From Xanthomarina gelatinilytica (lineage in GTDB: Bacteria; Bacteroidota; Bacteroidia; Flavobacteriales; Flavobacteriaceae), in contig NZ_ANLA01000004.1 in the NCBI RefSeq assembly GCF_000348685.1, positions 372,001 to 436,000 on the forward strand: a stretch of 64,000 nucleotides of DNA. Reading direction: 5' to 3'. Positions 16,707 to 56,373 of this stretch are shown here, in pieces. The notes beneath the pieces are model-generated. The model searched no databases. It was not told the DNA's origin and saw only the letters and a list, made by a program, of their open reading frames with translations. A program made the position numbers and the translations under genes. Position 1 is the stretch's first letter; every line of letters begins with the position of its first letter.

Positions 16707-16722
16707 AAAACGTGGAAATAGG

Positions 16723-16757
16723 CGTCTAACGTCTAGTATCTAACGTCTAATATCTAA
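16723..16757 (+). repeat. Tandem heptamer array between atpH and atpA
   Basis: Five head-to-tail 7-bp units with consensus YRTCTAA (for example CGTCTAA and TATCTAA) begin 17 bp after the atpH stop and end 6 bp before the atpA ATG. The array has the same period and placement as those around the small four-helix-bundle gene downstream of atpA, but no gene is inserted here. Confidence 0.85.
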
Positions 16758-16763
16758 ATAAAA

Positions 16764-18344: not shown

Positions 18345-18378
18345 TTCCGAATTTAGGATTAAGAATTCAGAATTATGA
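18345..18378 (+). repeat. Heptamer array upstream of the atp-operon four-helix-bundle gene
   Basis: Period-7 units of consensus TTNNGAA run from the base after the atpA stop to the start codon of the inserted gene (units at 18345, 18352, 18359, 18366 and 18373). The start codon lies inside the last unit. The segment 18359-18373 is a near-direct repeat of 18706-18720 on the other side of the gene. Confidence 0.8.
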
Positions 18379-18719
18379 GTTTTAAGGAAAGTGGCAATGC
18401 CATAGTAGATAAAAGTTTTTATTTTGCTTGTGATATTGTTATTTATGCTGAAGAACTTAAACAAAAGCGCTTTTTTGAAATAGCAAATCAATTACTAAAA
18501 TCTGGCACTAGTGTTGGTGCCAATGTGAGAGAATCTCAAAGAGGCGTTAGTACAAAAGATTTTAAAAATAAATTAGGAATTGCTCTTAAAGAAGCTGATG
18601 AAACTTCGTTTTGGTTGGATGTAATTGAAGAAACTAAAATTTATGAAGTTCCACAAAAGTTAAGAGAAGATTGTGAAGTGCTTATTAGACTTTTGGTATC
18701 AATTATTAAGAATTCATAA
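18375..18719 (+). CDS. Four-helix-bundle protein (23S rRNA IVP/Avd-like)
   Basis: A 114-residue helical protein of the family first seen encoded in intervening sequences of bacterial 23S rRNA and related to Avd of diversity-generating retroelements. Diagnostic motifs are SGTSVGANVRESQ (residues 43-55) and KEADETSFWL (72-81). It is inserted in the sense direction exactly between atpA and atpG. Its start and its last three codons plus stop lie in flanking period-7 arrays. There is no rRNA or reverse transcriptase nearby. The function is unknown; nucleic-acid binding is suggested by the family. Confidence 0.88.
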   Translation: MSFKESGNAIVDKSFYFACDIVIYAEELKQKRFFEIANQLLKSGTSVGANVRESQRGVSTKDFKNKLGIALKEADETSFWLDVIEETKIYEVPQKLREDCEVLIRLLVSIIKNS

Positions 18720-18747
18720 TTCATAATTCATAATTCATAATTTGAAA
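18706..18747 (+). repeat. Heptamer array downstream of the atp-operon four-helix-bundle gene
   Basis: Six 7-bp units: one TTAAGAA, four exact TTCATAA (18713-18740) and one TTTGAAA. They end 1 bp before the atpG ATG. The first two units encode the last residues and stop codon of the inserted gene. Confidence 0.9.
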
Positions 18748-18748
18748 A

Positions 18749-49677: not shown

Positions 49678-49705
49678 AGCCATTCTTTTTAGAATGGCTT
49701 TTTTA
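49678..49705 (+). terminator. Terminator after PBP1A
   Basis: AGCCATTCT pairs with AGAATGGCT around TTTT, followed by TTTTTT. It separates the PBP1A unit from the CoA-transferase genes. Confidence 0.9.
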
Positions 49706-49741
49706 TTTCGTATTTTTCCACTACAAAAAAATGACAGAAAC

Positions 49742-50443
49742 ATGATTAATAAAAAAGTGGCAAACGTTAGCGAAGCTCTAATAGGTGTTCAGGACAATAT
49801 GACCTTTATGCTTGGAGGTTTTGGACTTTGTGGCATTCCCGAAAACAGCATCAATGAGCTTGTAAAATTAAACCTAAAAGGATTGACTTGCATCTCTAAC
49901 AATGCTGGTGTGGACGATTTTGGTTTGGGATTACTGCTTCATAAAAAACAAATCAAGAAAATGATATCCTCTTACGTAGGCGAAAACGATGAGTTTGAAC
50001 GTCAGATGCTTTCTGGAGAATTGGATGTGGAATTGATTCCTCAAGGTACCTTGGCCGAACGTTGTCGTGCTGCCCAGTCCGGTTTTCCTGCAATCTATAC
50101 ACCGGCAGGTTATGGAACCGAAGTGGCAGAAGGCAAAGAAACCAGGGAGTTTGATGGAAAAATGTATGTCCTGGAACATGCCTTTAAAGCCGATTTTGCT
50201 TTTGTAAAAGCGTGGAAAGGAGATGCAGCTGGAAATTTAATTTTTAAAGGTACAGCCAGAAATTTCAACCCAGCCATGTGTGGCGCAGCTAAAATTACCG
50301 TTGCCGAGGTGGAAGAATTGGTGCCTGTTGGAACTCTCGATCCAAATCAAATTCATATTCCAGGAATTTTTGTACAACGTATTTTTCAAGGCGAAACATA
50401 CGAGAAAAGAATTGAACAACGAACGGTGAGACAAAGGGATTAA
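49742..50443 (+). CDS. scoA: 3-oxoacid CoA-transferase subunit A
   Basis: A 233-residue alpha subunit of succinyl-CoA:3-ketoacid CoA-transferase, used in ketone-body and acetoacetate metabolism. The Gly-rich CoA loop [11 protein letters not shown] and the conserved [22 protein letters not shown] are present. The start is the ATG at 49742 (MINKKVANV); a longer reading enters the upstream terminator. Its partner scoB normally follows directly but is displaced by a small inserted gene. Confidence 0.93.
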
Positions 50444-50473
50444 TTAATTTGATGATTAAATAATTTGAAAATG
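50444..50473 (+). repeat. Short AT-rich repeats upstream of the sco-operon four-helix-bundle gene
   Basis: AATTTGA occurs at 50446 and 50462 (16 bp apart) in a stretch that begins directly after the scoA stop and runs into the start of the inserted gene. The reverse-complement word TCAAATT ends the gap on the other side (50852-50858), so the gene is bracketed by inverted short repeats. Confidence 0.6.
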
Positions 50474-50839
50474 AGGAATGACAAAGATAATTTAATCGTA
50501 AAATTAACATTCGAATTAGCTTTAGATGTTATTTCATTTTCTGAAGAAATTAGAGCTAAAAATAAATTTGAAATGGCATCCCAAATTTTTAGAAGTGGTA
50601 CTTCTATTGGAGCGAACATTAGGGAGGCACAAAATGCTGAAAGTAAAAAAGATTTTATACATAAATTTAAAATTTCGGCAAAAGAAGCTGATGAATTAGA
50701 ATATTGGTTAAAACTTTGTGAGTCCTCTGAGTTTTATCCTAATCCAAACGAAAAATTATTAAAAGATTTGAAATCTGTAATTCTAGTTATTTCAAAAATT
50801 ATATCATCTAGTAAACAAAGCAAATTTTCAAATCATTAA
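50471..50839 (+). CDS. Four-helix-bundle protein (23S rRNA IVP/Avd-like), second copy
   Basis: A 122-residue helical protein with motifs SGTSIGANIREAQ (42-54) and KEADELEYWL (71-80), clearly paralogous to the protein inserted between atpA and atpG but only about half identical in the core. I chose the ATG at 50471; a TTG two codons upstream is possible. It sits in sense between scoA and scoB, with 27 bp and 19 bp gaps. The last codons and stop lie in the flanking AT-rich repeat. The function is unknown. Confidence 0.88.
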   Translation: MRNDKDNLIVKLTFELALDVISFSEEIRAKNKFEMASQIFRSGTSIGANIREAQNAESKKDFIHKFKISAKEADELEYWLKLCESSEFYPNPNEKLLKDLKSVILVISKIISSSKQSKFSNH

Positions 50840-50858
50840 ATTAACACATTATCAAATT
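50821..50858 (+). repeat. Short AT-rich repeats downstream of the sco-operon four-helix-bundle gene
   Basis: CAAATT/CAAATC words at 50821, 50829 and 50853 and AAATT at 50838. The reverse complement of this region resembles the upstream flank (AATTTGATAATG against AATTTGATGATTAAATAA). It ends at the scoB ATG. Confidence 0.55.
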
Positions 50859-51512
50859 ATGTTAGATAAAACAGGAATAGCAAAACGTATTGCAAAAGAA
50901 GTAAAAGATGGCTATTATGTCAATCTAGGAATTGGTATTCCAACCTTGGTAGCAAATTATGTAAGGGACGATATTCAAGTCGAGTTCCAAAGTGAAAATG
51001 GTGTACTTGGTATGGGTCCTTTTCCATTTGAAGGCGAAGAAGATGCCGATATCATAAACGCAGGAAAACAAACCATAACCACTTTACCTGGAGCCAGTTT
51101 TTTCGACTCGGCCATGAGTTTTTCCATGATTCGAGGACAACATGTGCATTTAACCATTCTTGGTGCCATGGAAGTTGCAGAAAATGGCGATATAGCCAAT
51201 TGGAAAATTCCAGGCAAAATGGTTAAAGGTATGGGAGGCGCTATGGATTTGGTTGCCAGTGCCGAAAACATTATTGTGGCCATGATGCATACCAATAAGG
51301 CTGGAGAATCTAAATTACTTAAACGTTGTAGCTTGCCTTTAACAGGAGTAGGTTGTGTAAAAAAAGTTGTTACCAATCTCGCTGTTCTTGAGGTAACGGA
51401 TAAAGGATTTAAATTATTGGAACGAGCACCTGGAATTTCTGTGGAAGACATAAAAAAAGCCACAGAAGGCACTTTAATTGTTGAAGGTGATATTCCTGAA
51501 ATGAGTCTTTAA
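50859..51512 (+). CDS. scoB: 3-oxoacid CoA-transferase subunit B
   Basis: A 217-residue beta subunit carrying the catalytic glutamate of CoA-transferases in SENGVLGMGPFP, plus GIGIPTLVANY and the GGAMDLV segment. It completes the enzyme encoded by scoA 416 bp upstream; normally these genes nearly touch. A palindromic repeat follows downstream. Confidence 0.94.
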   Translation: MLDKTGIAKRIAKEVKDGYYVNLGIGIPTLVANYVRDDIQVEFQSENGVLGMGPFPFEGEEDADIINAGKQTITTLPGASFFDSAMSFSMIRGQHVHLTILGAMEVAENGDIANWKIPGKMVKGMGGAMDLVASAENIIVAMMHTNKAGESKLLKRCSLPLTGVGCVKKVVTNLAVLEVTDKGFKLLERAPGISVEDIKKATEGTLIVEGDIPEMSL

Positions 51513-54066: not shown

Positions 54067-56373
54067 ATGAAAAAAACACTTACTTTATTAACTGTCTGTT
54101 TGTTGTTTTTGGGAACAACTTTCGCCCAGGAGCGAAATTGTGCTTCCATGGACAACCTTGAATACAGAATGCAGCAGGATCCAGGTCTTGCTCAAAGAAT
54201 GGCACAAATTGAAACTTATACACAAAATAAGGTTCAAAGTATGGAACAACATAGAGTTGATGGTTCTATTATTACTATTCCAGTGGTTGTACATGTAATT
54301 TACAGCAATTCCAATGAGAACATTAGCGATGCTCAAATTTTATCGCAAATACAGGTATTGAACGATGATTTTAGGAGAATGAATTCAGATGCCAACAATA
54401 CTTGGTCTCAGGCTGCAGATACTGAAATTCAATTTTGTATGGCAACCGTAGATCCTAATGGAAATCCTACAAATGGGATTACAAGAAAGTCCTCTACTAA
54501 AACATCTTGGGGAACAAACGACGCTATGAAAAAAGCATCCCAAGGAGGTGTAAACCCCTGGGATACCTCACAATATCTCAACATGTGGGTTTGTAACATT
54601 GGAGGAGGAATTTTAGGCTACGCTCAATTTCCTGGTGGAAGTGCTTCTACAGATGGAGTTGTGATTGGGCCTAATTATTTTGGAAGTAAAAATGGAGGTT
54701 CTGGTTTTTATTTATCAGCTCCATTCGATTTGGGAAGAACCACAACTCACGAAGTAGGTCACTTTTTAAACTTGCGTCATATTTGGGGAGATGGTGGTTG
54801 TTCTGTGGACGATTTTGTTAGTGACACGCCAACATCAGATGCAGCCAATTATGGTTGCGCAACTGGACATGTGTCCTGTGGTACCACAGATATGGTTCAA
54901 AACTACATGGATTATAGCGATGATGCATGTATGAATTTATACACTCAAGGTCAAAAAAATAGAATGCGTGCTATTTTGCTTCCAGGAGGAGCCAGAGCTA
55001 GTTTGGGAGCATCAACAAAATGTGATGGCGGAGGAAATACGCCTACCTGTTCAGATGGTGTTCAAAATGGAAATGAAACAGGTGTAGATTGTGGTGGACC
55101 AGATTGTGCACCTTGCCAAACAGCTTGTACAGATAATGAAGTAATTGTATCCATTAAATTTGACAATTACCCAGAAGAAACAGCATGGACCCTTAAAAAC
55201 GATAGTGGAACCACAGTAGCTTCTGGAGGAACTTATGGTTCCCAACCAGATGGTTCTACCTTAACGGAAACTTTATGTTTACCAGATGGATGTTATACTT
55301 TTACAATTACAGATGCCTATGGAGATGGTATTTGCTGTTCTTATGGCAGTGGAAACTATTCTGTTTCTGGACCTACAGGTGTGTTGGCTTCAGGAGGATC
55401 CTTTGGTAGCTCAGAAGCTACTAATTTCTGTTTAGGAAGTGGTCCAGCACCAACATGTACAGATGGTATTCAAAATGGAGATGAAACTGGTATAGATTGT
55501 GGAGGCTCTTCTTGTGCTCCTTGTGTAACACCTCCAACATGTACAGATGGTATACAAAATGGAGATGAAACAGGTGTAGATTGTGGTGGTTCTTCTTGCG
55601 CACCTTGTTCTACAGGAGGTACGGTTATTTTACATGAAGGGTTCTTTGAGTCTGGATGGGATGGATGGTCTGATGGAGGAAGCGATTGTGCTCGTTACTC
55701 TGGATCTCGTTCTTACGAAGGAAATTATTCCATTCGATTAAGGGATAATTCTGGAACGGCTTCTGCTATGACTTCACCTTCATTCAATTTAACCCCTTAT
55801 GGACAAGTTGAAGTTGAGTTTTATTTCTATGCTTATAGTATGGAGAATAACGAAGATTTCTGGTTGCGTTATTATAACGGTTCCAGTTGGACCACAGTAG
55901 CAAGTTATGCGAGTGGAACCAATTTTAACAACAATACGTTCTATACAGCAACGGTTACTCTAGATGCTTCACAATACAACTTTGCAAGTAATGCACAATT
56001 TAGGTTCCAGTGTGATGCTAGTTCCAATAGTGATTATGTTTATATAGATCAAGTTACCATTAGAGGAATCGGTTCTGGTTCTAGAGGAGCAGGAAACACT
56101 TTAAATGCCATTAGAACTTTAGACACCAACGATGCTTTTGCTTCTGAAGAGGATTTTATTTTATATCCAAATCCAGTGAAAGGATCTGTACTTCATGTGA
56201 GATTACCTGGAAATATTTCAGGAACGTTTAGAATTATCAATATGATGGGTCAAGAAGTCCTAAAAGGAGATTCCATTAAAGAAATACAAGTTGGAAACTT
56301 AAAATCTGGCATGTATTTTATTGAAGTAAATGATGGAGATGAGATAATGACCAAAAAGTTTATCAAACAATAG
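54067..56373 (+). CDS. Secreted M43 zinc metalloprotease with type IX sorting domain
   Basis: A 768-residue secreted protease: signal peptide (1-20, ending TFAQ), M43 pappalysin-like catalytic domain (about 45-315) with HEVGHFLNLRH (His228, Glu229, His232, His238) and the Met-turn YMDYSDDACM. Three 23-residue Cys repeats of pattern C-DGxQNG-ETGxDCGG--CAPC follow at 328-350, 464-486 and 492-514, with a beta domain between the first and second. A jelly-roll-like domain (about 520-675) and a type A type IX C-terminal domain (LYPNPVKGSV to KKFIKQ) close the protein. Confidence 0.93.
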   Translation: MKKTLTLLTVCLLFLGTTFAQERNCASMDNLEYRMQQDPGLAQRMAQIETYTQNKVQSMEQHRVDGSIITIPVVVHVIYSNSNENISDAQILSQIQVLNDDFRRMNSDANNTWSQAADTEIQFCMATVDPNGNPTNGITRKSSTKTSWGTNDAMKKASQGGVNPWDTSQYLNMWVCNIGGGILGYAQFPGGSASTDGVVIGPNYFGSKNGGSGFYLSAPFDLGRTTTHEVGHFLNLRHIWGDGGCSVDDFVSDTPTSDAANYGCATGHVSCGTTDMVQNYMDYSDDACMNLYTQGQKNRMRAILLPGGARASLGASTKCDGGGNTPTCSDGVQNGNETGVDCGGPDCAPCQTACTDNEVIVSIKFDNYPEETAWTLKNDSGTTVASGGTYGSQPDGSTLTETLCLPDGCYTFTITDAYGDGICCSYGSGNYSVSGPTGVLASGGSFGSSEATNFCLGSGPAPTCTDGIQNGDETGIDCGGSSCAPCVTPPTCTDGIQNGDETGVDCGGSSCAPCSTGGTVILHEGFFESGWDGWSDGGSDCARYSGSRSYEGNYSIRLRDNSGTASAMTSPSFNLTPYGQVEVEFYFYAYSMENNEDFWLRYYNGSSWTTVASYASGTNFNNNTFYTATVTLDASQYNFASNAQFRFQCDASSNSDYVYIDQVTIRGIGSGSRGAGNTLNAIRTLDTNDAFASEEDFILYPNPVKGSVLHVRLPGNISGTFRIINMMGQEVLKGDSIKEIQVGNLKSGMYFIEVNDGDEIMTKKFIKQ

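What the first reader, a model, noticed from the sequence alone, without database searches (positions are those of the whole stretch)
50444..50858. Second four-helix-bundle gene splits scoA from scoB, again in sense between two subunits
Seen: a 122-residue paralogue (SGTSIGANIREAQ, KEADELEYWL) occupies the gap between the two halves of 3-oxoacid CoA-transferase, with AT-rich repeats starting right at the scoA stop and ending at the scoB ATG. The flanks are inverted here (AATTTGA upstream, TCAAATT downstream), unlike the direct heptamers at the atp locus. Two independent cases of the same family choosing the same kind of site within 32 kb is unlikely by chance. Inferred: site preference for tight inter-cistronic gaps, or selection to keep both halves on one transcript.
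Basis: partly seen in the sequence, partly recalled or inferred. Interest (0 to 1): 0.78.

Follow-up and report, generated by a model that had tools for sequence, protein, structure and literature searches.

The report
Selfish-looking insert between operon genes
A small gene of the family first met inside bacterial 23S ribosomal RNA, framed by two complementary repeat arms, sits in the gap between the two halves of an enzyme, and its sampled relatives in this bacterial family sit nearly always in the same kind of gap and the same orientation, which points to a little-described class of inserts that live inside messenger RNAs.

Summary
Window 50444-50858 is the whole scoA-scoB gap and holds a 122-aa PF05635/TIGR02436 gene (23S rRNA intervening-sequence protein, IVP; 50471-50839). 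The flanks are complementary arms that pair in the folded transcript.

The pattern is general in the Flavobacteriaceae sampled. 145 of 149 copies with both neighbours called are in sense inside a co-directional gene pair; the window alone would predict about 35%. Left and right arms match within a copy better than between copies (0 of 10,000 permutations, two data sets). Arms travel with the protein lineage across different gaps. One clade is rejected for the sdhA/sdhB and fadB/fadA copies (AU p<0.001), so the same gap was entered more than once. The sco lineage is site-locked: of 81 copies in the best 80 named loci, 64 split scoA/scoB, yet only 7 of 35 sampled sco gaps hold an IVP, one decayed.

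Best reading: an rRNA-IVS-like element living in mRNA gaps. Stem mismatches show no G.U excess, which does not support selection on the RNA. RNase III cutting, mobility mechanism and protein function are inferred. Known family, new variant.

The parts
49694..50443 (+). scoA, 3-oxoacid CoA-transferase subunit A (upstream cistron)
   Evidence: TIGR02429 5.9e-79
50444..50470 (+). left arm: AT-rich repeat words from the scoA stop to the IVP start
   Evidence: TRF 50438-50468; 50445-50456 and 50461-50468 pair with the right arm; own right arm ranks first of 59
50471..50839 (+). IVP / S23p-type four-helix-bundle gene, 122 aa
   Evidence: PF05635 6.3e-23, TIGR02436 2.9e-27; solved relative 2RLD 3.5e-20; dN/dS 0.04 against the G005 ortholog
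50820..50858 (+). right arm, overlapping the IVP stop codon and reaching the scoB start
   Evidence: 50836-50843 and 50848-50859 pair with the left arm
50859..51512 (+). scoB, 3-oxoacid CoA-transferase subunit B (downstream cistron)
   Evidence: TIGR02428 1.1e-96
18345..18374 (+). left arm of the sister element between atpA and atpG
18375..18719 (+). IVP gene of the sister element, 114 aa
   Evidence: PF05635 8.1e-18
18708..18748 (+). right arm of the sister element (AATTCAT array)
   Evidence: TRF 18711-18742; pairs with the left arm in the fold

Best explanation
An interstitial element of the rRNA intervening-sequence (IVS) type that lives in mRNA instead of rRNA. Unit: left arm - IVP gene - right arm, about 415 nt here. 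Shown: the arms are complementary within copies; the unit lies in the gap between two cistrons, in sense; arm words go with the protein lineage to other gaps; the gene is under purifying selection in most same-lineage pairs tested and is broken in some copies. Inferred: it is transcribed as part of the host operon, so it needs the sense orientation; the transcript folds into a stem-loop that encloses the gene; a double-strand nuclease (RNase III, as shown for rRNA IVSs) cuts the stem, leaving two mRNA pieces that are each translated, so the insertion costs little in a cistron gap and much elsewhere. In 27 of 77 stems that passed the filters the right arm includes the IVP stop codon, so translation of the IVP gene could also open the stem and free the downstream start codon; this too is inferred. 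How it moves is unknown. Long residence at one gap (sco) is explained mainly by descent with losses, possibly with some transfer by recombination in the conserved flanking genes.
For: Orientation: 57 of 57 in the genus and 88 of 92 in 38 other genera are sense in a co-directional pair; window null 37/53 pairs co-directional x 0.5 = 0.35 (from my gene list). Arms: inverted match within 26.4 v between 17.0 (n=59) and 28.5 v 16.4 (n=92), 0 of 10,000 each; 45 ordinary window genes show none (17.2 v 17.0, 3120 of 10,000); phylum sample 28.4 v 15.3, n=28. Unit mobility: arm similarity follows protein similarity between copies in different gaps (Mantel r 0.23, 0 of 2000); sco-type arms reappear with sco-type IVPs in another gap in 12 Weeksellaceae-type loci, mostly Chryseobacterium (counted by eye). 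Repeated entry: AU rejects one clade for sdhA/B (p 0.0004) and fadB/A (0.0003) (gaps picked for the test after seeing the tree). Empty sites: in the genus 5 of 7 sco gaps and 5 of 7 atp gaps hold no IVP. Decay: 8 of 61 genus matches hold in-frame stops. Folding. The Coxiella rRNA IVS has the same anatomy, including heptamer repeats of varying number next to the S23p start (PMC4990558, sections 3 and 19 and passages read).
Against: Stem mismatches do not favour G.U: 102 G.U v 170 A.C on the sense strand (120 stems), and duplex energies do not favour the sense strand (-25.0 v -25.5, n=144), so selection for pairing in the mRNA is not shown; arms could be kept complementary at the DNA level. Direct similarity of the two arms is also above chance, though weaker (18.9 v 16.6 in the family), so repeat words alone explain part of the signal. 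ORF-less hairpins with similar words occur in some gaps without an IVP. The sco lineage stays in one gap across many genera, and labels of gaps are nearly clustered on the tree (9 changes, minimum 7), so movement is rare. dN/dS of 0.03-0.20 in 11 of 13 computable same-lineage pairs fits a useful protein as well as a selfish one. I looked for no transposase; no fixed terminal repeat or target duplication was seen. Antisense copies exist in the phylum sample (3 of 27). I have no transcript data; one paper's table row lists an IVP gene among changed transcripts in Flavobacterium psychrophilum (PMC5787105, passage).
Confidence: 0.58

Rival explanations
1. A host gene with a regulatory job: the IVP protein and its hairpin tune the ratio or stability of the two cistron products (e.g. 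subunit stoichiometry), and are kept for that.
For: dN/dS 0.03-0.20 in 11 of 13 computable same-lineage pairs; 64 of 81 copies of the named set at the sco gap, with similar arms there; 8 of 12 copies of this genome separate parts of one enzyme or complex by my reading.
Against: Only 7 of 35 sampled sco gaps hold an IVP match (one decayed), and 12 of the 28 without it are 0-6 nt long; the same family sits between unrelated genes (ffh/folD); in-frame stops in 8 of 61 genus matches, including the sco ortholog of G005.
Confidence: 0.2
2. An ordinary small gene family that happens to be inserted into intercistronic low-complexity hairpins; the arms belong to the genome's intergenic repeats, not to the element.
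For: ORF-less repeat words and hairpins occur in other gaps: atpH-atpA, several sco gaps, and the atpA-atpG gap of G006.
Against: Arm words follow protein lineage between different gaps and are shared by sco-type IVPs at two different gaps.
Confidence: 0.14
3. A reverse-transcriptase-dependent retroelement, because the IVP family is related to the Avd protein of diversity-generating retroelements.
For: Avd-PF05635 homology stated in PMC10053308 (passages read); sense-only insertion fits an RNA intermediate; PF00078 is somewhat commoner with IVP (15 of 45) than without (2 of 15), my count.
Against: A PF00078 match is found in 17 of 60 family genomes, and 30 of the 45 IVP-bearing genomes have none, including the richest (G014, 15 copies).
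Confidence: 0.05

Closest known systems
23S rRNA intervening sequences (IVS) with S23p ORF (e.g. Leptospira, Coxiella)
   Same: PF05635-type ORF in sense, enclosed by complementary ends that form a stem; short tandem repeats of variable number beside the start codon (Coxiella, PMC4990558).
   Different: Host is a protein-coding operon gap, not rRNA; up to 15 matches per genome in those sampled; arms differ from lineage to lineage; cutting by RNase III not shown here.
IVP genes in cas loci (PMC3936711, passage read; PMC10910872, one figure-legend passage)
   Same: Same family inside operons; one fetched case lies between cas6 and cas4 with octamer arrays on both sides.
   Different: PMC3936711 lists it as a function associated with CRISPR-Cas; the present pattern suggests it may be an insert unrelated to CRISPR (inference).
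Avd accessory protein of diversity-generating retroelements
   Same: Related four-helix bundle (PMC10053308, passages).
   Different: No linked reverse transcriptase: the only PF00078 match of this genome at E 1e-6 lies on another contig. Template and variable repeats were not searched for.
TAACTGA heptamer repeats of Beggiatoaceae and cyanobacteria (PMC4679880, listing and passages read)
   Same: Intergenic heptamer arrays near start codons, found also in some Bacteroidetes.
   Different: The words 'intervening', 'four helix' and 'S23' do not occur in its text; no paired arms are described in the passages seen.

Membership tests
PF05635 / TIGR02436 (23S rRNA IVP, four helix bundle) | profile score over the curated cut-off | tested here: met
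   81.5 v 33.8 bits, 95 v 24 bits
23S rRNA intervening sequence (IVS) | ORF of the S23p family | tested here: met
23S rRNA intervening sequence (IVS) | complementary ends forming a stem around the ORF | tested here: met
23S rRNA intervening sequence (IVS) | ORF in sense with the host transcript | tested here: met
   57/57 and 88/92 by gene strand; no transcript data
23S rRNA intervening sequence (IVS) | location inside an rRNA gene | tested here: not met
   neighbours are protein genes; no Rfam match at gathering score in the 12 own-genome loci
23S rRNA intervening sequence (IVS) | excision by RNase III without religation | not testable with these tools
   needs RNA data
Insertion sequence or MITE | fixed terminal inverted repeats shared by all copies | tested here: not met
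   arms match within copies, much less between copies
Insertion sequence or MITE | target-site duplication | tested here: inconclusive
   none evident by eye at sco or atp, but the gaps are short and diverged
Diversity-generating retroelement (Avd) | linked reverse transcriptase | tested here: not met
   the only PF00078 match of this genome is on contig C10, the window is on C4

The most novel reading that the evidence does not exclude
A phylum-wide class of mRNA-resident intervening elements: each IVP lineage recognises the repeat words of its own arms in RNA, the transcript is cut in the arms so that the host's two cistrons are expressed from separate pieces, and the excised RNA-protein particle is the mobile form that enters other cistron gaps. 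The IVP genes noted in CRISPR loci would be inserts of this class.
Probability: 0.25. Interest if true: 0.85.

Novelty: new variant of a known kind. Interest (0 to 1): 0.62.

Why it matters
What rRNA intervening sequences do, and how they spread, has long been open (PMC4990558, discussion read). Here the same gene family with the same stem anatomy occurs in many copies per genome, in places where empty, filled and decayed sites can be compared, so excision, mobility and the role of the protein become testable. It also warns that a gene found repeatedly inside an operon (for instance among cas genes) need not belong to that operon's function.

Tried and rejected
Direct heptamers at atp as a different architecture: rejected. 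RNA-level selection through G.U pairs: tested, not supported, and the A-rich sense strand confounds the test. Dependence on a reverse transcriptase: not supported. Phage carriage: no match in the phage collection; 32 plasmid records, those listed first mostly cyanobacterial (query was the L001 IVP, not the sco IVP). Orthology against lateral transfer for the sco lineage: unresolved. Distances correlate with the flanks (r 0.55 scoA, 0.40 scoB, against 0.66 between scoA and scoB; 65 rows), but 8 of 16 strong IVP splits conflict with a strong scoA+scoB split in quick trees. For the G000/G005 sco pair the IVP dS is 0.39 against 0.94 and 1.08 in the flanks; several other pairs lean the same way and some the opposite way, and base composition could cause it.

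A single clade was also rejected for the fadA/fadE gap (AU p 1e-46), but other gaps nest inside that lineage, so jumps out of the gap explain it as well as repeated entry; I do not count it.

A recent exchange of elements was considered from G005 v G006: their paa-type region is 93-100% identical in most 60-column blocks, except around two IVP gaps, where identity breaks close to the ends of the neighbouring genes. Element replacement and mismatch-limited recombination both explain it, so I do not count it as proof of movement.

Literature: eight searches gave no paper that I recognised as describing IVP genes with paired arms in operon gaps; the library is open-access only and holds no preprints.

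Rows left out of counts: 2 of 61 (N or contig end); 1 overlapping duplicate; 4 genus copies and 1 family copy without a called downstream gene; 3 of 30 phylum copies without both neighbours; 154 copies gave 147 tree rows and 144 arm rows; the AU tree used 56 of the 147 rows. One search printed a capped list; I took the 28 new loci it gave and further places in rank order, from 38 genera. One search kept the best 80 of 519 relatives, one of which (L162) is G005 itself. Neighbours were called as the longest ORF of 90 aa or more within 500 nt, so a short true neighbour can be passed over (in L084 the next gene up reads to me as groES, while a SecG ORF was taken).

Full report
What is there. The stretch 50444-50858 is exactly the gap between scoA (ends 50443) and scoB (starts 50859). 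It holds one gene, 50471-50839, 122 aa, of PF05635/TIGR02436, whose only PDB match by sequence at E 1 or better is 2RLD. The rest of the gap is two AT-rich arms. In the folded transcript 50445-50456 pairs with 50848-50859 and 50461-50468 with 50836-50843, in both the minimum-energy and the centroid structure; 0 of 100 shuffles fold as well. The element between atpA and atpG behaves alike. The genome has 12 matches, of which 3 hold in-frame stops. The genus is probably Xanthomarina: a contig of Xanthomarina sp. F2636L with an IVP of the sco type has the same length, 840832 bases, as the G005 contig of the same genus.

Neighbourhood and orientation. In eight genomes of the genus there are 61 matches, 2 to 14 per genome. 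In all 57 with both neighbours called, both neighbours and the IVP gene point the same way; the other 4 have a co-directional upstream gene and no downstream call. In 93 further copies from 38 other genera of the family, 88 of 92 do so, 3 lie downstream of a co-directional gene with the next gene opposed, and 1 is opposed to its upstream gene. In the window 37 of 53 adjacent pairs of my gene list are co-directional, so a random insertion would meet the rule about 35% of the time. In a phylum-wide sample that also contains some of this family, 18 of 27 meet it and 3 are antisense to both neighbours (ORF calls there not verified), so the rule is strong in this family and looser elsewhere. Median gaps in the family set are 55 nt before and 52 nt after the gene, and in 77 stems that passed filters the left arm starts a median of 3 nt after the upstream stop codon.

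Arms. I scored the complementarity of each copy's left arm with its own right arm and with those of the other copies. Own pairs win in the genus (26.4 v 17.0, n=59), the family (28.5 v 16.4, n=92) and the phylum sample (28.4 v 15.3, n=28), each with 0 of 10,000 permutations as good. Forty-five ordinary genes of the window show nothing (17.2 v 17.0). Direct similarity of the two arms is also above chance, but less (family 18.9 v 16.6). In the named set, most of it from the sco gap with arms shared by descent, own pairs win slightly (32.1 v 30.4, 24 of 10,000, n=80); relatedness may contribute. Arm words follow the protein: for copies in different gaps, arm similarity rises from 30.0 to 46.3 with protein similarity (Mantel r 0.23, 0 of 2000). 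So arms and gene behave as one unit. Copy-number change of the words is visible between two copies with identical proteins (L034, L046).

Results against an RNA reading. If pairing in the mRNA were selected, mismatches should favour G.U. They do not: 102 G.U against 170 A.C over 120 stems, and computed duplex energies are about equal in sense and antisense. The sense strand is A-rich, which biases the count, but the test gives no support for selection on the transcript. ORF-less hairpins with similar words also occur, for instance in the atpA-atpG gap of G006, the atpH-atpA gap and several sco gaps; they may be remnants of elements or a separate kind of repeat.

Movement and residence. The 154 genus and family copies fall into 77 gap classes, 30 of them with two or more copies. 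Many shared gaps hold one lineage, but AU tests reject a single clade for sdhA/sdhB and fadB/fadA (p 0.0004 and 0.0003; 56-row tree; gap identities). The gaps were defined by their flanking genes, but I chose which to test after seeing the tree. In the genus the sco gap is filled in 2 of 7 and the atp gap in 2 of 7 genomes. Across 35 sco gaps (7 of the genus and the 28 best-scoring from other genera of 50 genomes with scoB), 7 hold IVP matches, one of them a weak decayed one; 12 of the 28 others are 0-6 nt long. Yet among 81 copies in the best 80 named loci found with the sco IVP as query (519 found), 64 lie between scoA and scoB. Twelve others, from Chryseobacterium and close kin, carry the same kind of arms in another gap whose flanking protein ends look by eye like those of L062, which match enoyl-CoA hydratase and 3-hydroxyacyl-CoA dehydrogenase. 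Thus one lineage is tied to one gap over long times, with occasional jumps and many absences. Of 13 computable same-lineage pairs that I picked in the genus, 11 have dN/dS of 0.03-0.20 and two 0.33 and 0.44. Eight of 61 genus matches have stops, including the sco copy of G005.

What the flanking genes are. In this genome the split pairs are a fadB-like gene and fadA, two pieces of methionine synthase, cysD/cysN, an ABC-2 permease and ABC ATPase, fadA/fadE, sufC/sufD, an RND permease and an outer-membrane efflux protein, ffh/folD, scoA/scoB, an enoyl-CoA hydratase and a PaaY-like protein, atpA/atpG, and a gene close to diphosphomevalonate decarboxylase with an unassigned gene. By my reading 8 of 12 are parts of one enzyme or complex.

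Comparison. The rRNA IVS of Coxiella, as described in PMC4990558 (sections 3 and 19 and passages), has an S23p gene in sense, a 28-bp terminal stem, tandem heptamers of varying number before the start codon, and is cut by RNase III without religation. The features that I could test are met here except the rRNA location. Avd of diversity-generating retroelements is a relative (PMC10053308, passages), but 30 of 45 IVP-bearing genomes sampled have no PF00078 match. PMC3936711 reports 18 IVP genes in cas loci (passage); the one cas case fetched here lies between cas6 and cas4 and is bracketed by octamer arrays, as an insert would be. A second cyanobacterial case has no clear arms.

Verdict. The finding is real and part of a general pattern. 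It is best explained as an IVS-like element adapted to cistron gaps. The transcript processing, the means of movement and the use of the protein are inferred; the absence of a G.U signal, the ORF-less hairpins and the purifying selection are the main reasons for keeping rivals open.

Noticed in passing
window 16707-16763 (atpH-atpA gap): ORF-less tandem words (TCTAACGTCTAATA) upstream of atpA; other Xanthomarina genomes have different words or a small hairpin there.
   Followed up: partly
L071, just before atpG: The atpA-atpG gap of G006 has no IVP but a perfect-looking hairpin of words like those of the G001 arms.
   Followed up: no
L052 v L053 (G005 and G006): A paa-type region nearly identical between two species except around two IVP gaps, where the elements differ; another IVP shared by the two genomes (L043, L051) is identical.
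   Followed up: partly
L004, after the IVP ORF: A second, internally deleted copy of the element follows directly, together with a repeat of the 3' end of the upstream gene.
   Followed up: no
L272 2501-2860: IVP gene between cas6 and cas4 of a type I-D CRISPR locus on a Pseudanabaena plasmid, with AGCTAAAA-type arrays on both sides.
   Followed up: partly
L300: A 360-nt sco gap with no IVP match that seems to hold a different small ORF.
   Followed up: no
L174: A MAG contig labelled Bifidobacterium breve carries a scoA-IVP-scoB locus close to flavobacterial ones; probably a mislabelled bin.
   Followed up: no
window 55450-55608: 84-nt tandem repeat, 1.9 copies, within the ORF 54067-56373.
   Followed up: no
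L015, L016, L019 sco gaps: Empty sco gaps of three Xanthomarina genomes share a hairpin-like CACTGAG...GTCGA repeat.
   Followed up: no
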